From contig NZ_MCIB01000012.1 in the NCBI RefSeq assembly GCF_003609645.1, positions 62,001-126,000 of the forward strand: a DNA stretch of 64,000 nucleotides. The letters are read 5' to 3'. Under the pieces are notes generated by a model, which was not told the origin of the DNA, made no database searches, and worked only from the letters and a program-made list of their open reading frames with translations. Source of the DNA: Thermohalobacter berrensis. GTDB lineage: Bacteria; Bacillota; Clostridia; Tissierellales; Thermohalobacteraceae. Below are positions 16,746 through 57,135 of this stretch, piece by piece. The translations under genes were made by a program, and so were the position numbers. How positions within the stretch are numbered: the stretch's first letter is position 1; each line of letters starts with the position of its first letter.

Positions 16746-17677
16746 TAAATGAGGGGAAATTAATTGACAATATGATAAATACAATTGAGAATGGAAAATT
16801 GAGAATTGAGAATTAAAAGAAAATAATAGTTATTAGTGGTTAGTGGTTAGGGAATACAATTGAGAATTGATAATGGACAATTGAGAATTAGAAATACAAT
16901 TGAGAATTGTAAACAAAACATGTTGAGGGACGTGGGCGTCCCTCAACAACAACGGTCCTCATAAAACAAGTAAAACGGGGGACAGATCTATAGTTGAACG
17001 AAGTGAAACTAAGACCTGTTCCCAAGTTGCACGAGGTAAATGAAGATAATGCAATTGAGAATATATTTGTTAGTAGTTAGTAGCCTGTAGTTAGTAAAAT
17101 ACAGTTGCTAGCTTTTGGTTCCTAGTCCTTAGCTTAAACGTTGTTGAGGGATTACGAATCCCTCAACAACAAACCCAACCACTACCCACTAACCACCAAA
17201 AACTGCATTTAAAAAGCAATTGAGAATTGATAATGGACAATTGACAATTAGAAAATAAGAAACGGACGTCGGAGAATTTTCTTCTTTGGTCAGGTAACGG
17301 ACATCAGAGCTTTACTCCCTAGGATAAGTAACGGACTTCGAAGTTCGGCTTCATTGGTTTAGTAACGGTCCTCATAGGCTAGACGTCTTAGGTTAAGTAA
17401 CGGACCACATAGCATTACTTCCTGGCCTAAGTAACGGACATCTTAGTTTCTCTTCTAAGGTATAGTAACGGACTTCACAGGCTAGACGTCCTTGGCAAAG
17501 TAACGGACATCAGAGTATGGCTTCTTTGGTCTAAGTAACGGACCTCAAAGCTTTACTCCATGGGTCAAGTAACAAATTTTAAAGGAGAATGTAAAGAAAT
17601 GTAGAATATAAATTAATGTAGAAATTTTTTGAAAATTGGAAAATTAGGGTATATTTAATAAAAAGGAGGGGAGCCCT
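16746..17677. repeat. 930-bp intergenic mosaic of heptad tracts, REP palindromes and a GTAACGG array
   Basis: No gene is visible. Contents in order: AATTGAG-type heptad tracts (about 16780-16915), a REP-like palindrome with GC-rich centre (16922-16947), a GGGGACAG-type element of about 50 bp (16978-17031), about ten consecutive GTTAGTA-like heptads (17068-17140), a REP palindrome (17143-17167), a CCACTAACCACC tract, another AATTGAG tract, then a GTAACGG array with units starting at 17259, 17294, 17328, 17362, 17397, 17431, 17465, 17500 and 17535 and a truncated one at 17569. The chemoreceptor gene follows. Confidence 0.85.
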
Positions 17678-30351: not shown

Positions 30352-30854
30352 TTTTAAATTGTAAATGTTAAATTAAGTTGAGGGATTACGAATCCCTCAA
30401 CAACGCTAAAACACCCCTTAAGGAATTTACAATTTACAATTAACAATGAACAATTAATGAAATGCAAAATTTTTTCCATTTCATAATGTTGAATTTTAAA
30501 TTGTAAATGTTGAATTAGGTTGAGGGATTACGAATCCCTCAACAACGCTAAAAATACAGTTGTTAGCTCTTGGTTTCTGGTTCCTAGCCAAAAAGTTTTT
30601 AATTTTACTAAGAGCTGAGAGCAAAGAGCTAGGAACTGCTTTTAATAGCAAGGAATTATTACGATTGTTTTCTAATCAATAATCTTCATAGTATTATTAA
30701 AAACCAACCACTAACCACTAATAACCAAAAACTTTTTTTCTAGTAACGGACATCAAAGCATTACTTCTAAGGTTAAGTAACGGACATCATAGGCTAGACA
30801 TCTCGGGTCAAGTAACGGACCACGAAATCCAACTTCTTAGGTTAAGTAACTATC
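30352..30854. repeat. 500-bp intergenic repeat block with tandem duplicated unit and GTAACGG array
   Basis: Two near-identical units, each a heptad tract plus a REP palindrome followed by GCTAAAA, lie at about 30350-30410 and 30490-30551 (palindromes 30377-30401 and 30519-30543). Then come GGTTCCTAG and GAGCTGAGAGC heptads, a CCACTAACCACTAAT tract, and three GTAACGG units starting at 30743, 30777 and 30812 with a partial one at 30846 that abuts the stop of the ttcA-like gene. No coding sequence is visible. Confidence 0.85.
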
Positions 30855-31565: not shown

Positions 31566-32620
31566 TATGACACCCTTTCATACTTATTCTTTTGTTTATA
31601 TAGCTACAAAAACCCATCTTAATTATATATGATTATTATTATACTTAGGTTACAATTGGATTACAAAAGTATTAAAAATGGTATGACGGGGAAGAAATGA
31701 TATGAGGATTGTTACTTGATCTAGGAAGTAAGGCGTTGTTGTCCGTTACTTAGACCTAGGAAGTAAGGCGTTGTTGTCCGTTACTATGCCAGAGATGTCT
31801 AGCCTAGGAGGTCTGTTACTTTAGCCAAGGAGTTAAGCTTTGTGGTCCGTTACTTAGTCAGAGAAGTCTAGCCTTCGGGGACCGTTACTTTTACTTTGCC
31901 AAGGACGTCTAGCCTGTGAAGTCCGTTACTATGCTTAAGGGTCTAGCCTTTGGGGACCGTTACTTGGCCTGGGTAGAGAGTCTAAGACGTCCGTTACTCT
32001 GTCTAGGATGCCAGGCTGCGAGGTCCGTTACTTAGACCTAAGAAGTAAAGCGTTGAGGTCCGTTACTTAGGCCAGGAAGTCTAGCCTAGGAGGTGCGTTA
32101 CTTCGACCAAAGAAGTAATGCTTTGTGGTCCGTTACTTAGACCTAAGAAGTAAAGCGTTGAGGTCCGTTACTTGTTAAAGCCGTGTTTCGTGATTTAGTA
32201 ATGCTTTGAAGATCGTACTACTAACTACACCCTACTAACTACTAACAAGTATTTTCTAATTGTCCATTGTCCATTGTCAATTGCTTTTAAAATGTAGTTT
32301 TTGGTGGTTAGTGGATAGAGGTAATCGCGGAAATATGGGGGCAGGCCTCCTGTTTCACTGCGTTCAACGATAGGTCTGTCCCCTTTGTTACGATTTTAAG
32401 TTGATGGATTACGAATCCATCAACAACATAACAAGTTTTTTTACTAACAACTAACTACTACCTACTAACTTTTTCTAAAAAGCTAAGGACTATGAACCAA
32501 GAGCTAGCAACTGTATTTTACTAACTACATGCTACTAACTGCTAACAAATTTAATTGTCAATTACATTTCCTATTGTATTTGAAAGAGGAGTCTGGTTAG
32601 TGTTGCACATATAATAAAAA
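31566..32620. repeat. 1-kb intergenic mosaic with a 13-unit inverted GTAACGG array
   Basis: The complement of the GTAACGG module (CCGTTAC) recurs about 13 times between 31711 and 32173, every 34-36 bp; the unit beginning GTTACTTAGACCTAAG occurs twice in identical form. Heptad tracts (about 32216-32300), a CCACTAACC-type tract in reverse, a GGGGACAG-type element (about 32339-32391), a REP palindrome (32400-32423) and further GTTAGTA heptads follow. No open reading frame of interest or RNA gene was found before the tRNA terminators. Confidence 0.85.
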
Positions 32621-34097: not shown

Positions 34098-35294
34098 ATG
34101 AGAAAATGGTTTTTTACTTCAGAGTCAGTAACAGAAGGACATCCAGATAAAATTTGTGACCAGATTTCAGATGCAGTTCTTGACGCTATTTTAGAAAAAG
34201 ACCCAGCTGCAAGAGTAGCCTGTGAAACATCAGTAACAACAGGATTAGTTTTAGTATCAGGTGAGATTTCAACAAAGTGTTATGTAGATATTCCTAAAGT
34301 AGTAAGAAAGACTATAGAAGGAATAGGATATACTAGAGCCAAGTATGGATTTGACTGTGATACTTGTGCAGTACTTACATCAATAGATGAACAGTCACCA
34401 GATATTGCAATGGGTGTAGATGAAGCTTTAGAACATAAAGGTGGAGAAGAAGATGACCTAAGCTTAATAGGTGCTGGTGATCAAGGTATAATGTTTGGAT
34501 TTGCATGTAATGAAACTGAAGAATACATGCCGCTTCCAATAGCATTAGCTCATAAACTTGCAAGAAGATTAGCTGAAGTTAGAAAAAATGGGACATTAGA
34601 CTATTTAAGACCAGATGGAAAAACTCAGGTTACAGTTGAATATCACGATAATAAACCGGTAAGAATAGATGCCATAGTAGTATCTACTCAACACAGTCCA
34701 GAGGTAGACTTAAAGACAATAGAAAGAGATATAAGAGAATATGTAATTAGAAAAGTTGTACCAAGAGAATATTTAGATGAGAACACAAAATACTACATTA
34801 ACCCAACTGGAAGATTCGTAATTGGTGGTCCTCAAGGTGATGCAGGTCTTACAGGAAGAAAGGTTATAGTTGATACTTATGGTGGATATGCTCGCCATGG
34901 TGGAGGAGCGTTCTCAGGAAAGGACCCAACTAAGGTTGATAGATCAGCTGCTTATGCTGCTAGATATGTAGCTAAAAATATAGTTGCAGCTGGATTAGCT
35001 GATAAATGTGAGGTTCAACTTGCATATGCAATTGGTGTTGCACATCCTGTATCAGTATTTGTAGATACTTTTGGAACTGCAAAAATAGAAGAAAGTAAAA
35101 TAGAGGAACTAGTTATGAAACACTTTGACTTAAGACCAGCAGCTATAATTAGAGATCTAGACTTGAGAAGACCAATCTATAAACAAGTTGCAGCTTATGG
35201 ACACTTTGGAAGAGATGACCTTGACCTTCCATGGGAGAGAACAGACAAAGCAGAAATATTGAGAAAAGAAGGCTTAAATGCAATTGAAAATTAA
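34098..35294 (+). CDS. metK: S-adenosylmethionine synthetase
   Basis: This 398-residue enzyme makes S-adenosylmethionine from methionine and ATP. It carries [24 protein letters not shown] at the N-terminus, the signature [12 protein letters not shown] and the phosphate loop [22 protein letters not shown]. Length is typical. GGAGG precedes the ATG. Expression is controlled by the SAM-I riboswitch 230 nt upstream. The C-terminal codons run directly into an AATTGAC heptad tract. Confidence 0.98.
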
Positions 35295-35571
35295 CAATTG
35301 ACAATGGACAATTAAATACAATTGAAAATGTAAAATGGAAAATATGATAAATACATGTTAGTAGTTAGTAAGAGTTAAATGTTGAGGGATTGTGAATCCC
35401 TCAACAACAATTTTATTACTAAGAACCAAGAACTAAGGACTAACAGTTCAATTTTTTAATGTTGCTGATGGATTCGTAATCCATCAGCTTTTTTTATGTG
35501 CATTTAACCCTTCACCCTTTACTAAAATTAAACATATTATATTATAACCAGAAAATAAAGGGTGTGGTCTT
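35295..35571. repeat. Repeat block after metK with a REP-type terminator
   Basis: Heptad tracts (35290-35360), a REP palindrome (35391-35405 onward on its left arm from 35381), an AAGAACC heptad tract and a second REP palindrome (35464-35487) followed by seven Ts, which is probably the metK terminator. No gene is seen. Confidence 0.75.
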
Positions 35572-38200: not shown

Positions 38201-38783
38201 GAATAGGAAATGCAATTGACAATGGAGAATTGAGAATTAAAAGAAAATAATAGTTATTAGTGGTTGGTGGTTAGTGGTTAGGAAAGTACAGTTGTTAGCT
38301 ATTGGTTCCTAGTTCCTAGACAAAAATTTTTAGTTTTGCTAAGAGCTGAGAGCAAAGAGCTAGGAACTGCTTTTAATAGCAAGGACTTATTACGATTGTT
38401 TTCTAATCAATAATCTTCATAACATTACTAAAATCCAACCACAATCCACTAATTACCAAAAACTGCTTTTAAAAGTAACGGACCGCAGAGCTTTACTGCT
38501 TTGGCCGAGTAACGGACACCTTAGCTTCTCTTCCAGGGCATAGTAACGGACCTCGAAGCACTACTTCCTAGGTTAAGTAACGGACATCAACGCCTTACTA
38601 CTTAGGCTAAGTAACGGACCCCCTAGGCTAGACATCCTTGACAAAGTAACGGTCCCCGAAGGCTAGACTTCTCTGGTCAAGTAACGGACATCTTTGCTTA
38701 TCTTCTCAAGTCAAATCTACCCTTTAGCATATTATCCACTCTATGTTATAATGTAGAAAACTACTATAATTGGGGGATTTAAA
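38201..38783. repeat. Intergenic mosaic with a 7-unit GTAACGG array before recD2
   Basis: Order: AATTGAC heptads (38210-38250), GGTTAGTGGTTAGG, GGTTCCTAG and GAGCTGAGAGC heptads, a CCACTAATTACCAAAAACTG tract and seven GTAACGG units of 34-35 bp between 38475 and about 38714. The right half (array then CCACTAACC tract then heptads in reverse) reappears inverted downstream of recD2. No gene is visible. Confidence 0.85.
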
Positions 38784-41015: not shown

Positions 41016-41610
41016 AGCGGTTGCTAGAAATCACGTGTTTCGTGAATACTCCTAAGATGTCTAGCCTACGTGGACCGTTACTTAGACCTAAGAAGTAAAG
41101 CTTGGCTGTCTGTTACTTAACCTGGAAAGTTATGCTACGAGGTTCGTTACTTAACTTAGAAAGCTATACTACGAGGTCCGTTACTATGCCAAAGAAGAGA
41201 GTCTAGGATGTCCGTTACTTTAAAGACAGTTTTTGGTGGTTAGTGGGTAGTGGTTGGGGAATTGACCTGAAGAGTTAGACTTTAGGGTCTGTAATTCTCA
41301 ATTCTCCATTCTCCATTCTCAATTGTATTTAATGGTCCGTTACTTAGACCAATGATGTCTAAGCTTCGTGGTATTTTTAAAATTTTCAATTTTCCATTTT
41401 CAATTTTCAATTGCATTTTTCAGGGCGTCCCTCAACAACTGGAAACTACTAGCTTCTTCGTCTTCTACCAGTGAAACATGGGGACAGGTCTTCTGTTTCA
41501 CTCTGTTCAACGATAGATCTGTCCCCCATTTCACTTTACTAATTTTACATTTTACATTTTCAATTTTTAATTTTCCTCAATCTACTAACTAATTTTTAGG
41601 AGATTTTATT
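41016..41610. repeat. Intergenic mosaic with an inverted GTAACGG array after recD2
   Basis: CCGTTAC units lie between about 41060 and 41225 (roughly five), then AGTTTTTGGTGGTTAGTGGG, inverted heptads (41290-41332 and 41380-41415), a lone CCGTTAC unit (41336), a degenerate REP arm and a GGGGACAG-type element (41481-41528). A heptad tract precedes the comF ribosome binding site. Apart from shadow frames no gene is present. Confidence 0.82.
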
Positions 41611-45639: not shown

Positions 45640-45674
45640 TTTGAAATAATTAATTATTTCAAATTATCTTCCGA
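45629..45674. repeat. Perfect 46-bp palindrome over the flgK stop codon
   Basis: The last codons of flgK (GGA AGA TAA) and the following 13 nt are copied in exact inverted form, 23 bp per arm, with no loop. A heptad tract (AATGTAAAATTTAAAATG) starts directly after. It has no T-run, so it is not a classical terminator. Confidence 0.9.
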
Positions 45675-45749
45675 ATGTAAAATTTAAAATGTAAAATTGA
45701 AAATTAGACCAAAGATACTTGGCGTGTAAAAATATCCTTTGGAGGATTT

Positions 45750-46103
45750 ATGAAAGATAATAATTTGATAAAAGAAAAAAGCTATAATTTTGCATTAAGG
45801 ATAGTCAAAATGTACAAATATGTCATAAAAGAAAAAAGAGAATATGTTATGTCAAAACAACTTTTAAGGTCTGGTACAAGTATAGGAGCTAATGTAGAAG
45901 AGGCTTGTGCTGGTCAAAGTAAAAAAGATTTTATTTCCAAATTTTCAATTGCCTTAAAAGAAGCTTTTGAGACAAGGTATTGGTTAAGATTAATAAAAGA
46001 TAGCAATATGATAGAATCAAAGTACGTAGATAGTATGATAAGTGATTGTAATGAACTTATTTCTATACTTACTAAAATTATAAAAACGGCTAAAAATAAT
46101 TAG
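45750..46103 (+). CDS. Four-helix bundle protein of the 23S rRNA IVP family
   Basis: This 117-residue protein matches the four-helix bundle family otherwise encoded in 23S rRNA intervening sequences: YNFALRIVKMYKYV, SKQLLRSGTSIGANVEEACAGQSKKDFISKFSIALKEAFETRYWLRLI. Function is unknown; members occur as lone cassettes in many genomes. It is inserted between two flgK genes and is flanked by AATGTAAAA heptad tracts in opposite orientation (45674-45709 and 46109-46142), which suggests insertion as a unit. The stop sits in another short palindrome (about 46094-46116). Confidence 0.9.
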   Translation: MKDNNLIKEKSYNFALRIVKMYKYVIKEKREYVMSKQLLRSGTSIGANVEEACAGQSKKDFISKFSIALKEAFETRYWLRLIKDSNMIESKYVDSMISDCNELISILTKIIKTAKNN

Positions 46104-46166
46104 TTTAATTATTTTACATTTTACATTTTCAATTTTAAATTTTTATTGTGAACGGAGTGAGAAAAT

Positions 46167-47672: not shown

Positions 47673-47982
47673 TCCTTTCGGAATGTAAAATTTAAAATGT
47701 AAAATGGAAAATATAATAAATACAATTGAGAAATAAAAAAATTAAATATTGAAAATGTAAAATTGAAAATTAGGCAAGATAAACACAAAAACGTAGAGCA
47801 CATTTCAATGTGCGATTAGTGAAACAAAAAACTAGTGAAAGAAGGGGACAGATCTATCGTTGAAGGAAGTGAAACAGGAGACCTGTCCCCAAGTCCCATG
47901 GGGTGAAGATGGACAATTTAATTAAGAGACTATTTTCCGTTGTTGATGGATTCGTAATCCATCAACTAAAAGGAGGTTTAAT
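47673..47982. repeat. Repeat block before flgL
   Basis: Heptad tracts (47683-47775), a GCACATTTCAATGTGC palindrome (47798-47813), a GGGGACAG-type element (47843-47892) and a REP palindrome (47942-47966) that ends only a few nucleotides before the AAAGGAGG of flgL. The REP stem could therefore influence flgL translation. Confidence 0.8.
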
Positions 47983-49316: not shown

Positions 49317-49595
49317 TTCTAAATTTTAAATGTTAAATATGATAAATACAATTGAGAATTGACAATGGACAATTGACAATTAGAAAAGATTAAAAATGTA
49401 AAAAAGTTAGTAGCATGTAGTTAGTTGTTAGTAGCAAAAAAATGCAACTCTTAGTTCTTAGAGTTTTTATTTCGCTGAAAGCACCTCACATTGCCGTTGT
49501 CGAGGGACGCCTACGTTCCTCGATCATAGCTTTAAGAAATTTCAACGTTGTTGAGGGATTCGTAATCCCTTAACCATTATTTAGGTAGTGATATA
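49317..49595. repeat. Repeat block upstream of the RAYT gene
   Basis: Heptads (49321-49400), GTTAGTAGC heptads, a REP-like element with degenerate arms (about 49498-49523) and a REP palindrome (49550-49574) whose right arm reads CCCTTAAC. The RAYT start codon is 21 nt further on. Confidence 0.78.
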
Positions 49596-50099
49596 ATGTC
49601 TCCTACATGGAAAAATCTACAACAACCTAATATAGCTTACTTTATAACTACAACTATAACCAATTATGTCCCTATATTTATAGATAATAAGTATAAAAAT
49701 ATAGTTCTAGACAACTTATATTTTTACAGCAAAAAATATAATTATAAATTAATTGCTTATGTCGTAATGCCGGAACATATTCATTTTATCTTAAGCTTAA
49801 AAAGAGAATCTAAACTTCATGAATTTATGAGAGATTTTAAGAAATATACATCTAAACAAATAGTAAAACAATTGAAAGAAGATAATAATAGTGAAATATT
49901 AAATGTATTTGCTAATAAAGCGAATGGAAAAGCAAATTATGCAGTTTGGATGCAAAGATATAGGAGTGTTCCAGTTTATAGTGAAAAAATATTAAAACAA
50001 AAGATTGATTACATACATAGAAATCCATTAAGAAGAGGGTTAGTAAATGAACTAGAAGATTACCAATATAGTAGTTTTCATATATATTATAAGGAATAA
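49596..50099 (+). CDS. REP-associated tyrosine transposase (RAYT, TnpA_REP)
   Basis: This 167-residue protein has the Y1/RAYT core: YFITTTITNYVPIF, then the metal-binding HUH motif VVMPEHIHFIL (His61, His63), a helix region and WMQRYRSVPVYSEKI with candidate catalytic tyrosines (Tyr122 or Tyr128), ending in IDYIHRNPLRRGLV. RAYTs are single-copy, domesticated relatives of IS200/IS605 transposases thought to spread REP palindromes. REP-like palindromes flank it directly (49550-49574 and 50100-50123). It is inserted between flgL and the DUF6470 gene in the flagellar cluster. Confidence 0.92.
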   Translation: MSPTWKNLQQPNIAYFITTTITNYVPIFIDNKYKNIVLDNLYFYSKKYNYKLIAYVVMPEHIHFILSLKRESKLHEFMRDFKKYTSKQIVKQLKEDNNSEILNVFANKANGKANYAVWMQRYRSVPVYSEKILKQKIDYIHRNPLRRGLVNELEDYQYSSFHIYYKE

Positions 50100-50316
50100 G
50101 CTGATGGATTGCGAATCCATCAGCAACTTTAGGGATATAGTGAAGTTGATATTAAACAACGTAGCGCAGAATTTATTCTGCGCATTATAATTATTAAGAC
50201 ATTACCTAGTTGTTGAGGGACGCCACGTCCCTCAACTATAAGGGAGATTCATAATTTATATTTTGTTATTGAGGGATTCGTAATCCCTCAATTTACATAA
50301 TATAGGAGATGATAAC
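50100..50316. repeat. Three REP-type palindromes and one GCGC palindrome after the RAYT gene
   Basis: REP palindromes at 50100-50123, about 50213-50237 (GGGACG centre) and 50268-50291 and a GCGCAGAATTTATTCTGCGC palindrome (50164-50183) occupy the whole gap. The last REP copy lies just before the next ribosome binding site. Confidence 0.82.
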
Positions 50317-51778: not shown

Positions 51779-52146
51779 TGAACAATTAAAGATACAATTA
51801 ACAATTTACAGTTTACAAATTACAATTAGAAATACAATTAAAAATTGAAAATTGAAAATGTAAAAAAAGTTAGTAGCATGTAGTTAGTTGTTAGTAGCAA
51901 AAAAATACAGCTCTTAGTTCTTAGAGTTTTTTATTTCGCTGAAAGTAGCTCACATTTCAATGTGAGGTTACATTTGCAAACCATTAATCGTAGGCACAAT
52001 TAATTGTGACCTACAATAATATAGTTAACGTTGTTGAGGGATTCGTAATCCCTCAACTTGGACGTTGTCGTGGGACATCCAAGCACATCGACTAATAATT
52101 TTCTTAAAAACTAAACAAAATTTCCCAAAAAAATTTCAAAAAATCC
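51779..52146. repeat. Repeat block between csrA and the flagellin promoter
   Basis: Heptads (51780-51870), GTTAGTAGC heptads, a CTCACATTTCAATGTGAG palindrome (51949-51966), a CACAATTAATTGTGACC palindrome (about 51990-52011) and a REP palindrome (52033-52057). No gene is seen. Confidence 0.78.
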
Positions 52147-52342: not shown

Positions 52343-53884
52343 ATGAGAATTAACCACAATATTTCAGCATTAAACACTTACAGACAGCTAAGTTTTAATA
52401 ATATTAACACTCAAAAATCATTAGAAAAATTATCTTCAGGTTACAGAATTAACAGAGCTGGAGATGATGCAGCAGGTCTTGCGATTTCAGAAAAAATGAG
52501 AGCTCAAATAAGAGGTTTAGGACAAGCTCAAAGAAATGCTCAAGATGGTATTTCTTTAATTCAGACAGCTGAAGGTGCATTGAATGAAACACAATCAATA
52601 CTTCAAAGAATGAGAGAGTTAGCAGTACAATCTGCTAACGATACTAACGTAGATGTTGACCGTGAAGCACTTCAAAACGAAATAGACCAGTTAGCTCAAG
52701 AATTAACTAGAATAGCTAACACTACAGAATTTAACCAAAAGACATTACTAAATGGTGGAATAACACAAAGTGGTGTTGGTGAAGTTAAATTCCATATAGG
52801 AGCAAATCAAGGACAAGACGTATCATTAGCGATAGCAGCTATGGATGCTTACTCACTAGGAGTAGCTAGAGACGTAACTGAAACTTCAGCAACTGTTAAT
52901 GGAAGTGTTATATCTAATGTAGAATTTGATGAAAATAATCTTGGCAGCGCAGTAGTAGATGGGGCAAATATTACATTTAATGCTGCTGATAATACAGGAA
53001 CTGCTGCTTCTGTAACTCTTGATAGTGGTGCAGGAACAATTACAATAACTGATGGCAGTGCTAGTGCTGATGCAAATAATATTAAAATTGAATTAACCAC
53101 TAATTCTAGTGATACTTTAGATGTTTCTGCTTCTGGTGATACAATTACAATTGCTCTTGCCAATTCAACATCTAGTAATAACACTGCTGGAGCCATAGAA
53201 ACTGCCTTACAAGGGTTAGGAACAGTAAATGGTGTAGATGTTAGTGACTGGACTGTATCAGGAGATGCTACTTGGACTTCGGGACCTCCGACTTCAGCTT
53301 CTGTTTCAGCAACAAGCTTATCTGGTGGAGCTGATCCAAATGCAGCTGAAACAATAGTTACTATTAGTGATGGAACGAATACTCAAAATATAACAGTAAA
53401 TGACACAGATACAAGTGTATCAATTGATTCAGGTGTTTTTGCTGGAATTTCATTTGATGTATCAGACGTTACTACACTAAACAGTGGTAATGATAGTATA
53501 AATGTTTCACAGACTGTTTATTCTGCAACAGCTGCTACTTTCTCAGGAGGAGAAAAGACAGCAGATGCATCTGTTAAAGGTGGAATTGATATATCAACTC
53601 AAACAGCAGCAAGTAGTGCTATAGATACAATAGATACAGCATTAACTAAAGTATCAGAAGAAAGAGCAAAGCTTGGTGCTTATCAAAACAGACTTGAACA
53701 TACAATAAACAATCTAGGAACAGCAAGTGAGAACCTAACAGCAGCTGAATCAAGAATTAGAGATGTAGACATGGCTAAGGAAATGATGCAATTTACTAAG
53801 ATGAATATCTTACAACAAGCTGCTCAAGCAATGTTGGCTCAAGCCCAGCAACAACCTCAAGGAGTATTACAACTTCTTAGGTAA
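52343..53884 (+). CDS. hag: Flagellin (precursor form, gene interrupted by a group I intron near its 3' end)
   Basis: From ATG 52343 (CAAGGAGGAA upstream) the unspliced frame gives 513 residues. The N-terminal D0/D1 region is canonical (MRINHNISALNTYRQLSFNN, LSSGYRINRAGDDAAGLAISEKMR), as is the C-terminal D1/D0 (NRLEHTINNLGTASENLTAAESRIRDVDMAKEMM). Residues about 185-425 form a Thr/Ser/Ala-rich variable region for the outer filament surface. The frame ends LAQAQQQPQGVLQLLR-stop, but a group I intron core follows and a second C-terminus lies at 54312-54356. Joining 53839 to 54312 gives the canonical end LAQANQQPQGVLQLLR. Confidence 0.93.
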   Translation: MRINHNISALNTYRQLSFNNINTQKSLEKLSSGYRINRAGDDAAGLAISEKMRAQIRGLGQAQRNAQDGISLIQTAEGALNETQSILQRMRELAVQSANDTNVDVDREALQNEIDQLAQELTRIANTTEFNQKTLLNGGITQSGVGEVKFHIGANQGQDVSLAIAAMDAYSLGVARDVTETSATVNGSVISNVEFDENNLGSAVVDGANITFNAADNTGTAASVTLDSGAGTITITDGSASADANNIKIELTTNSSDTLDVSASGDTITIALANSTSSNNTAGAIETALQGLGTVNGVDVSDWTVSGDATWTSGPPTSASVSATSLSGGADPNAAETIVTISDGTNTQNITVNDTDTSVSIDSGVFAGISFDVSDVTTLNSGNDSINVSQTVYSATAATFSGGEKTADASVKGGIDISTQTAASSAIDTIDTALTKVSEERAKLGAYQNRLEHTINNLGTASENLTAAESRIRDVDMAKEMMQFTKMNILQQAAQAMLAQAQQQPQGVLQLLR

Positions 53885-54311
53885 TGCTGGATAAGGGTCC
53901 CTTAAAGGGTAACCTCTAAGTGCAAATCGGGTGAATTGCTGGAACTTCCTAAAGCTCTGCTCCCTACAACGTAATCCGAAAGGATAGGCGTGATAGGTTA
54001 AAAAACAGCAGAGATGGAACAATGGATAATCAGCAGCCAAGCTCCTGTTCCGAAAGGATGGAGAAGGTTCAACGACTAGGGCGAACGGCCTACGGCAATT
54101 GAGAATTGATAATGGAGAATTGAGAATTATAAAACTCAATTGTACGGCTATGAGGTCCGTAGGGGTATGAGGTTCTCCGAAGTGCCCGACAACCGGAAAT
54201 AAAATTGAAAATTGAGAATGGAAAATTGAAAATTAGTAATATAATAAAATTCATTCTTAAAACCGGTTGAAGATATAGTCTGGCAAGTATCGAAAGATAT
54301 TTGATGATCCG
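53840..54311 (+). ncRNA. Group I (IA-type) self-splicing intron in the flagellin gene
   Basis: The catalytic core can be traced: P3 TCGGG (53927-53931) with CCCGA (54185-54189); the P element GAATTGCTGGAA; P5 CTCTGCT/AGCAGAG; the Q element AATCAGCAGCCAAGCTCC (about 54028-54045); the R element GGTTCAACGACTAG; the S element GAAGATATAGTCTGG; P7 GACTA (54074-54078)/TAGTC (54276-54280); P8 CAACCGG/CCGGTTG; P9 stem with GAAA tetraloop (54284-54303); terminal omega-G 54311. The insert between P7 and P3 marks subgroup IA. The 5' site after T53839 is inferred from the duplicated C-terminus; I could not find a convincing P1 for it, and GGAT/GTCC near 53892 is an alternative. Confidence 0.9.
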
Positions 54312-56884: not shown

Positions 56885-57135
56885 CAAAATCCTTAAAGGA
56901 TTTTGTAATGTAAAATTGAAAATGTAAAATGTAAAATAAAAAGATTATAAAAACTATAAAAGACACATTGAGTTGTAAATGTTGAATTAGTTTAGGGTAT
57001 ATAAAGAAGTATATAATTGAGGGACGTAGCGTCCCTCAATAACTAATGAAAAATTTTCATTATATAGATACTTTAATAATTTTCAATTTTTAATTTTGAA
57101 TTTTTAATTCCCTAAAAAGGGTAAGGGGTGGTTAC
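56884..57135. repeat. Palindrome plus repeats between flaG and fliD
   Basis: ACAAAATCCTT and its complement (56884-56906) with a 1-nt centre follow the flaG stop and lead directly into AATGTAAAA heptads (56907-56940). A REP-like palindrome with a GGGACG centre (57017-57040) and an inverted heptad tract (57075-57110) precede the fliD ribosome binding site GGGTAAGGGGTGG. Confidence 0.8.

What the first reader, a model, noticed from the sequence alone, without database searches (positions are those of the whole stretch)
16780..17250. Intergenic DNA built from degenerate 7-nt tandem units
Several apparently different repeats share a 7-bp period. Between 17068 and 17140 about ten successive heptads follow a GTTNNTA pattern (GTTAGTA, GTTAGTA, GCCTGTA, GTTAGTA, AAATACA, GTTGCTA, GCTTTTG, GTTCCTA, GTCCTTA). 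AATTGAG AATTGAT AATGGAC AATTGAG, AGAGCTG AGAGCAA AGAGCTA GGAACTG and AACCACT AACCACC are the same scheme with other words. The same tracts recur in over a dozen gaps (for example 30480-30660, 35290-35450, 38210-38470, 45675-45709, 49320-49460, 51780-51920). Cyanobacterial STRR heptamers are the nearest known parallel; I know of no named family in Clostridia.
Basis: partly seen in the sequence, partly recalled or inferred. Interest (0 to 1): 0.7.

Follow-up and report, generated by a model that had tools for sequence, protein, structure and literature searches.

The report
Heptad arrays end S23 elements
The seven-base tandem repeats between these genes look like the matched, inverted ends of a very small genetic element built around an uncharacterised protein (S23) best known from insertions in ribosomal RNA, which offers an explanation for puzzling seven-base repeats seen in many bacteria, plasmids and phages.

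Summary
In detail: intergenic DNA of the window has a strong lag-7 excess (z 13.8; coding none). The tracts are probably not free-standing satellites. The window holds an S23 gene (PF05635, 23S rRNA intervening-sequence protein; 45750-46103) bounded by inverted heptad tracts. Elsewhere, lag-7 tracts lie beside S23 genes in 43 of 61 loci (both sides 30; other lags tested at most 5 per side). The heptad word matches between the two ends of one element, inverted, and differs between elements (5-mer sharing 0.49; shuffled 0.067). S23 co-occurs with AATKGAN tracts (9 of 11 against 36 of 238 genomes of the phylum sample). In the Alcanivorax genus the one genome of 17 without S23 has 1 match, the others 46-278. 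ORF-less copies with matched ends and a 23S rRNA insertion with heptad ends tie these together. Against: a prediction test with a second word largely failed; 18 of 61 S23 loci, own S23 copy 1 and two phage S23 loci lack heptads; most window tracts have no inverted partner. Favoured mechanism, inferred: a pentameric S23 ring binds one heptad per subunit. How the element moves is unknown.

The parts
45750..46103 (+). S23 gene (23S rRNA intervening-sequence protein, four-helix bundle, 117 aa): protein of the one complete element in the window
   Evidence: PF05635 E 2.5e-28; TIGR02436 E 4.8e-33; whole-genome family search E 7e-28
45673..45708 (+). left heptad end (AATGTAA AATTTAA AATGTAA AATTGAA AATTAG)
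   Evidence: lag-7 tract; inverted partner of the next part, 5-mer sharing 0.81
46108..46147 (-). right heptad end, inverted copy of the left word
   Evidence: the two arms pair in the predicted fold (whole-fold z only -1.0)
16781..16819 (+). AATTGAG tract of the finding, no inverted partner within 700 bp
16821..16856 (+). TTAGTGG tract of the finding
16856..16889 (+). AATTGAG AATTGAT AATGGAC AATTGAG tract of the finding
17069..17137 (+). GTTAGTA / GTTNNTA heptads of the finding; by eye inverted relative to 17177-17196
   Evidence: 93% complementary copy of 17062-17135 at 32480-32553
17177..17196 (-). AACCACT heptads (GTTAGTG on the other strand)
17217..17250 (+). AATTGAG AATTGAT AATGGAC AATTGAC tract of the finding
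47679..47722 (+). solitary tract that repeats 25 bases of the left end of the S23 element letter for letter (GAATGTAAAATTTAAAATGTAAAAT)
   Evidence: sequences; family D7
56906..57112 (.). inverted tract pair without an S23 gene between (129 bp apart): candidate ORF-less element
   Evidence: 5-mer sharing 0.47
54096..54235 (+). two tracts inside a predicted group I intron (53873-54302)

Best explanation
The heptad arrays are the terminal repeats of small elements built around an S23 gene (PF05635 / TIGR02436, the protein known from 23S rRNA intervening sequences), and of ORF-less relatives of those elements. A complete one lies at 45673-46147: four to five heptads, S23 gene, inverted heptads. 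Each element has its own heptad word, alike at both ends, so words differ between elements while the period stays seven. SHOWN: S23 gene in the window between inverted tracts; word match between ends; the period at S23 ends; co-occurrence with S23; ORF-less copies with matched ends; change of unit number in sevens; a 23S rRNA insertion with heptad ends. INFERRED: the S23 protein, whose Xanthomonas homologue is reported as an assembly of five four-helix bundles, binds about one heptad per subunit at each end, which would explain why the unit is seven, why ends mostly hold 4-5 units and why units of both ends change together; slippage or unequal exchange then lengthens or shortens arrays. The element would spread by a process in which S23 acts as the recognition part and the host, or an RNA step, supplies catalysis; S23 has no known catalytic domain. 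Tracts would survive right behind stop codons because a 7-nt unit holding a stop codon puts stops into all three frames within 21 nt. Solitary tracts such as those at 16780-17250 would be one-ended or decayed relatives (not shown for each).
For: Window element. S23 loci: 61 loci fetched, best matches first, of 152 rows; lag-7 tract upstream in 36, downstream in 37, either 43, both 30; other lags tested (5,6,8-11,13) at most 5 per side. Second set, Alcanivorax genus, 25 newly fetched loci of 46 rows (related species, not independent): 16 up, 14 down, 9 both, other lags 0. 8 of 8 plasmid S23 loci fetched (of 25 plasmid records hit) carry lag-7 tracts, 7 on both sides. Ends match: 29 elements, 5-mer sharing 0.49 inverted, 0.106 uninverted, shuffled 0.067 +- 0.024, maximum 0.194 of 5000. 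Control ORFs of 90-400 aa in 143 loci that were fetched for bearing heptads: tracts on both sides 31 of 698, with matching inverted words 4 of 698; S23 31 (this script's rule) and 21 of 61. Co-occurrence in 249 genomes of the window's phylum: S23 in 9 of 11 genomes with AATKGAN x4, in 36 of 238 without, Fisher p 4e-6; over the family cut-off 8 of 11 and 31 of 238, p 2e-5. Alcanivorax genus: 16 genomes with S23 hold 46-278 ARTKRAN x4 matches (overlapping matches counted; reversed control 2-23), the one without holds 1. Between glyA and nrdR (named by eye) the words at both ends of the same S23 element change together across 15 loci (G count at position 2 r 0.84, at position 5 r 0.97; arms agree 0.857 against 0.739 +- 0.024 shuffled, maximum 0.826), and one genome has no element there, homology breaking at one heptad border and about 10 nt outside the other. 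ORF-less inverted pairs: 42 pairs, 32 of them 125-140 bp start to start, word correlation between ends 0.83 and 0.95. 23S rRNA: in G090 an insertion of about 110-125 nt in an LSU hairpin loop starts and ends with inverted heptads of the TTCGAAG kind, and next to another rRNA copy an S23-like C terminus (score 62 against 31 S23 proteins, best of 300 shuffles 39) stands 7 nt before a TTCGAAC array. Steps of seven: 25 of 104 indels in tracts, 9 of 344 outside, in 62 alignments at 85% identity or more. Solved homologue 2rld (E 7e-34) and the more distant 2gsc (E 0.13 by sequence; called a PF05635 representative in PMC10053308) have five chains each; title of Lin 2006 seen in a reference list.
Against: Prediction test, written down beforehand: five genomes whose S23 ends carry TTCGA/TTGGA-like words were expected to hold dispersed GTTSGAN x3 tracts; 3 of 5 (G087, G161, G139) had none, one (G097) had only its S23 end, one (G158) had one dispersed place besides its S23 end; of 13 genomes with the pattern only 3 have S23 by PF05635, little more than expected from 45 of 249. 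G090 among those ten does hold an S23-like end in a partly masked stretch; the others are unexplained. 18 of 61 S23 loci have no tract on either side, including own copy C12:22188. 2 of 2 phage S23 loci have none. Heptad genomes G177, G225, G293, G296 have no S23 hit, and that of G249 is weak. In the window 2 tract pairs within 700 bp are inverted, 7 are direct. In one plasmid element (Anabaena) and the two Planktothrix ones the arrays do not match as simple inverted ends by eye. No target-site duplication was established and no catalytic domain is known. The Alcanivorax comparison has a single S23-minus genome and its species are related.
Confidence: 0.78

Rival explanations
1. Slippage minisatellites: any 7-mer can be amplified by replication slippage because seven bases is the polymerase contact length; S23 genes merely sit in repeat-rich gaps.
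For: Unit number changes in sevens. Heptamers were reported as the commonest class of longer simple repeats in most genomes studied, with a polymerase-footprint proposal (Mrazek 2007 as cited in PMC4679880 and PMC4692102, passages).
Against: Words match between the two ends of an S23 element in inverted, not direct, sense (0.49 against 0.106); the same words recur across phyla, by eye often as sharp AT-rich tracts in GC-rich surroundings; tracts lie beside S23 far more often than beside other ORFs and follow S23 presence.
Confidence: 0.1
2. The arrays are binding sites of a post-transcriptional regulator (CsrA, cold-shock protein or ribosomal protein S1), kept by selection at gene ends, and S23 is one such regulator or a bystander; nothing moves.
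For: Tracts sit at gene ends in fixed orientation: an ORF of 120 codons or more ends near the tract in sense in 82 of 150 bacterial tracts and in antisense in 13 of 150; counting only stop codons lying wholly before the tract, 38 against 12. Two junctions stay occupied, by eye, with changing words across the Alcanivorax genus. MacGregor 2015 proposed translation for TAACTGA repeats (PMC4679880, passages).
Against: ORF-less copies with matched ends and mostly similar length, presence and absence at the same junction, occurrence in viral contigs and on plasmids of several phyla.
Confidence: 0.2
3. A telomerase-like bacterial reverse transcriptase (DRT10 kind) writes the tandem repeats.
For: DRT10 makes tandem-repeat cDNA from a short RNA template, with varied motif lengths (PMC12632851, passages).
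Against: The window carries many words; repeats lie in matched inverted pairs around S23. I did not search for reverse transcriptases.
Confidence: 0.04
4. The tracts belong to the IS200-like transposase (Y1_Tnp) family that is also present in the window and mobilises palindromic repeats.
For: A Y1_Tnp gene lies at 49596-50099 and palindromes share the gaps with heptads.
Against: That gene is bracketed by the palindromes, not by a matched heptad pair; the heptad link to S23 holds in loci chosen without regard to Y1_Tnp. Flanks of Y1_Tnp genes elsewhere were not surveyed.
Confidence: 0.04

Closest known systems
Intervening sequences (IVS) of 23S rRNA with an S23 ORF (Leptospira, Coxiella; PMC4990558, passages)
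   Same: S23 gene inside a short element (428 nt in Coxiella), terminal inverted repeats that form a stem; in G090 an rRNA insertion with heptad ends
   Different: The window element and the other S23 elements examined here, except those at rRNA in G090, lie between protein genes as far as ORFs and annotation show; ends are tandem heptads with element-specific words, which the passages read do not mention; excision by RNase III not tested
Cyanobacterial STRR heptamers, Beggiatoaceae TAACTGA, Xanthomonas and Nostoc GGGAATC / GGGGATT, Geobacter GGACCGG (PMC4679880, PMC4692102, PMC2700814, passages)
   Same: Tandem heptamers of a few units, often intergenic, degenerate words; TAACTGA near gene ends
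   Different: Described as repeats alone; no link to S23 in the passages read
Accessory variability determinant (Avd) of diversity-generating retroelements
   Same: PF05635 resembles Avd (PMC10053308, passages); weak profile match of the window protein to the Avd model (E 0.08, below cut-off)
   Different: Reverse transcriptase and template or variable repeats were not searched for at S23 elements
MITE-like non-autonomous elements
   Same: ORF-less copies, mostly of similar length, with matched inverted ends
   Different: No transposase known and no target-site duplication established

Membership tests
23S rRNA intervening sequence (IVS) | encodes S23 protein (PF05635) | tested here: met
   window 45750-46103, E 2.5e-28
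23S rRNA intervening sequence (IVS) | complementary terminal repeats forming a stem | tested here: met
   inverted ends 45673-45708 and 46108-46147
23S rRNA intervening sequence (IVS) | located inside an rRNA gene | tested here: not met
   window element lies between protein ORFs and no rRNA reached the Rfam threshold in the window; met by the ORF-less insertion in G090
23S rRNA intervening sequence (IVS) | excised from the precursor RNA by RNase III | not testable with these tools
   needs RNA data
cyanobacterial STRR heptamers | tandem heptamers in intergenic DNA | tested here: met
cyanobacterial STRR heptamers | the published words | not tested
   words recalled only; AATCCCC arrays beside S23 in Planktothrix plasmids were seen
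MITE | matched inverted ends without ORF | tested here: met
   42 pairs in two Alcanivorax-genus genomes; one pair in the window, 56906-57112
MITE | target-site duplication | tested here: inconclusive
   compared junctions differ too much to define one
slippage minisatellite | unit number changes by whole units | tested here: met
   25 of 104 indels in tracts, 9 of 344 outside
slippage minisatellite | arrays independent of a flanking gene | tested here: not met
   S23 association and matched inverted ends; but see the failed prediction

The most novel reading that the evidence does not exclude
S23 elements are a pan-bacterial class of minimal selfish elements (about 0.45 kb, one gene) whose pentameric protein reads one heptad per subunit, so that each lineage carries its own seven-letter code at both ends. 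rRNA intervening sequences, cyanobacterial STRRs, TAACTGA and similar heptamer families would all be sites or remains of this one system, possibly spread through an RNA step as the related Avd protein suggests.
Probability: 0.4. Interest if true: 0.92.

Novelty: new variant of a known kind. Interest (0 to 1): 0.85.

Why it matters
Two long-standing oddities would become one testable problem: tandem heptamers, reported as the commonest longer simple repeats in most bacterial genomes studied (passage in PMC4679880), and the S23 protein, still called functionally uncharacterised in 2024 (passage in PMC11270868). If S23 reads heptads, it would be a small natural sequence-specific ring with an easily varied code; changes at two S23 residues that follow heptad position 2 in what look, without a tree, like two subclades give a first handle. 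It may also give an origin for the heptad hairpins found at nine places of a 13.9-kb phage contig, though no S23 gene was shown there.

Tried and rejected
Alternatives tried: heptads as chance composition (rejected); a fixed composite with GG in the third unit (weakened: viral contigs give 47 stretches for that order, 30 and 17 for two other orders, at least 120 for no GG, 1 for the reversed pattern); AATT words as the defining feature (rejected: many words); DRT10-like writing (no positive evidence); phage records for the L218 region (no match); a whole-element RNA fold (z -1.0, not significant). The reversed-pattern control is itself a heptad word in some genomes (Alkaliphilus 145 matches), so it is not a clean null there. 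The prediction that genomes with TTCGA/TTGGA-like S23 ends hold dispersed copies largely failed. The first register for the Alcanivorax arms was partly wrong and was redone (one row, L393, still off register). L385 was dropped because my motif missed its ORF. A first comparison of viral loci used alignments down to about 60% identity and gave no clear step of seven; one search keeps only those at 85% or more.

Full report
OBSERVATION. The seven-base period is real. Lag-7 self-match in the intergenic DNA of the window is 13.8 standard deviations above dinucleotide shuffles and is absent from coding DNA. 35 tracts pass one tract rule at lag 7, at most 3 at any other lag from 4 to 20 that is not a multiple of seven. 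In 16780-17250 the excess is z 8.9. There the pattern AATTGAN AATTGAN AATGGAN AATTGA (two mismatches allowed) has 50 places, its reversed control none.

HOW FAR IT SPREADS. By eye many are sharp AT-rich tracts in GC-rich surroundings. In those 117 loci (856 kb), with AATKGA tracts masked, there are 140 lag-7 tracts of other words against at most 27 at any lag from 4 to 20 that is not a multiple of seven. Viral contigs give 47 stretches against 1 for the reversed pattern. In a phage contig, L218, heptad tracts stand at nine places in 13.9 kb, most of them as hairpins (15 tracts). In a sample of 249 genomes of the window's phylum, 11 have AATKGAN x4; 8 have the reversed control, with 25 matches of which 14 are in one genome, G099.

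DYNAMICS AND PLACE. In 62 alignments of at least 700 columns and 85% identity among the fetched loci, indels of exact multiples of seven make up 25 of 104 in tracts and 9 of 344 outside; the tract indels printed are all from viral loci. In related phages one junction holds a tract in one contig and unrelated DNA in another (L362 and L376). Tracts lie behind stop codons, AATTGAN in sense: an ORF of at least 120 codons ends near the tract in 82 of 150 bacterial tracts in sense and 13 of 150 in antisense; in viral loci 128 and 52 of 273. Part of this comes from stop codons inside the tract; counting only stop codons lying wholly before it, 38 against 12 remain in the bacterial set. In the window itself the distance is larger (median 129.5 for 8 tracts). 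Since 7 is 1 modulo 3, a unit with a stop codon gives stops in all frames.

THE S23 LINK. [quoted passage not shown] The same gene lies in the window at 45750-46103 (PF05635 E 2.5e-28, TIGR02436 E 4.8e-33), between inverted tracts 45673-45708 and 46108-46147. In 61 S23 loci (those fetched, best first, of 152 rows, from the phylum sample and from named heptad-rich genomes) a lag-7 tract lies upstream in 36 and downstream in 37, either in 43, both in 30, while the other lags tested reach at most 5. In 25 further loci of the Alcanivorax genus, many of them the same elements in related species, the counts are 16, 14 and 9, other lags 0. Of 25 plasmid and 2 phage records hit I fetched 8 and 2: all 8 plasmid loci have tracts, 7 of them on both sides; the 2 phage loci have none. 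The Anabaena plasmid element stands between cas2 and cas1.

ENDS MATCH. Over 29 elements with different words, 5-mer sharing between the upstream tract and the inverted downstream tract is 0.49, without inversion 0.106, and 0.067 +- 0.024 when ends are dealt out among elements, maximum 0.194 in 5000. Other ORFs in loci fetched for bearing heptads have matched inverted tracts in 4 of 698 cases, S23 genes in 21 of 61. Across 15 loci of the same element between glyA and nrdR (named by eye), words at both ends change together; residues S66N and D/E94K/R follow the letter at heptad position 2, by eye in two groups of proteins, which is suggestive only, since word distance also follows protein distance (r 0.80). 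End tracts are 4 or 5 heptads long in 81 of 116 cases.

CO-OCCURRENCE. S23 is found in 9 of 11 AATKGAN genomes and 36 of 238 others in the 249 (Fisher p 4e-6; with hits over the family cut-off 8 of 11 and 31 of 238, p 2e-5). In named heptad genomes it is found in 14 of 16. In the Alcanivorax genus 16 of 17 genomes have S23 and hold 46 to 278 ARTKRAN x4 matches (reversed control 2 to 23); the one without has 1. That genome also lacks the glyA-nrdR element; homology stops at one heptad border and about 10 nt outside the other. At a second junction the same genome has, by eye, a short decayed-looking heptad pair.

ORF-LESS RELATIVES AND RECURRENT SITES. In two genomes of the genus I paired by hand 42 inverted tracts too close for an S23 gene; 32 are 125-140 bp apart start to start and their words agree between ends (r 0.83 and 0.95). 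At one gene end, compared over 17 genomes, the gap begins, by eye, with heptads of different words, lengths and interiors close behind the stop codon (one of the 17 is partly N).

RIBOSOMAL RNA. In G090, a genome found through the word GTTCGAN, a 23S rRNA gene carries an insertion of about 110-125 nt in a hairpin loop that starts and ends with inverted heptads of the TTCGAAG kind (I recall the flanking sequence as helix 45). Next to another rRNA copy, whose 5' part reads N, an S23-like C terminus (score 62 against 31 S23 proteins, best of 300 shuffles 39; no Pfam hit for the 22 residues) precedes a TTCGAAC array by 7 nt; from the sequence that follows I take it to lie inside the 23S gene (recalled, not tested). 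This ties the classic intervening sequences to the heptads.

AGAINST. A prediction noted beforehand failed for the most part: of five genomes with TTCGA/TTGGA-like S23 ends only one has a dispersed GTTSGAN tract, and ten of thirteen genomes with that pattern have no S23 hit. In 12 stretches of such genomes I saw tracts at gene ends without an S23 gene beside them, apart from the G090 rRNA case. Own S23 copy 1 (C12:22188) is not heptad-bounded. 18 of 61 loci show nothing. Most window tracts have no inverted partner within 700 bp. So S23 is unlikely to be the only route by which heptads arise or persist, or many arrays outlive it.

MECHANISM. S23 homologues 2rld and, more distantly, 2gsc have five chains per entry, and the 2gsc paper's title, seen in a reference list, speaks of five four-helix bundles. 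My reading is one heptad per subunit. That is inference, as is the mode of spread. PF05635 resembles Avd, which is essential for retrohoming (PMC10053308, passages), so an RNA step is possible.

PRIOR ART. The 5 papers in the held library that print one of six 14-letter stretches of such tandems are, by titles and abstracts, not about bacteria. Searches on heptamer repeats (20 of 1,934, 20 of 86 and 25 of 371 papers listed) and on S23 or four-helix-bundle terms with repeats or mobility (20 of 20, 12 of 22, 30 of 1,393 and 24 of 24 listed) showed no paper that links S23 with heptamers, as far as titles, abstract openings and the passages I read go. PMC3936711 (passages) notes 18 S23 genes in cas loci, one between cmr3 and cmr2, which fits insertion at gene junctions. 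Most subscription papers are not in the library.

Noticed in passing
window 49596-50099 with 49539-49583 and 50102-50127: IS200-like transposase gene (Y1_Tnp, PF01797) bracketed by inverted copies of the palindrome GTTGYTGAKGGATTCGTAATCC, of which one pattern finds 15 copies in the window: a REP-like family with its likely mobiliser.
   Followed up: partly
window 17294-17557, 30742-30846, 31711-32173, 38474-38715, 41050-41258; own genome C12 near 22188: Arrays of 34/35-nt units beginning GTAACGGAC in both orientations; one array directly follows the S23 gene copy that lacks heptads. 35 is five times seven, which may be chance.
   Followed up: partly
window 53873-54302: Predicted group I intron that carries two heptad tracts inside it.
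   Followed up: no
L473, L475, L477: S23 genes inside defence-like loci on plasmids: between cas2 and cas1 in Anabaena, between DISARM drmD and an MmeI-type gene in Planktothrix No.66, between a helicase-related and an N-6 DNA methylase gene in Chlorohelix.
   Followed up: partly
L521 (G304): The junction studied holds a 656-bp insert with, by eye, a partial repeat of the neighbouring gene end between heptad arrays of different words.
   Followed up: no
L551, L552 (G090): Two 23S rRNA copies of one genome carry different insertions at the same hairpin, by eye one heptad-bounded and one not.
   Followed up: partly
G302 (Alkaliphilus pronyensis, L108): 145 matches to the reversed control pattern: AGTTAAN-type heptads are abundant there.
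   Followed up: no
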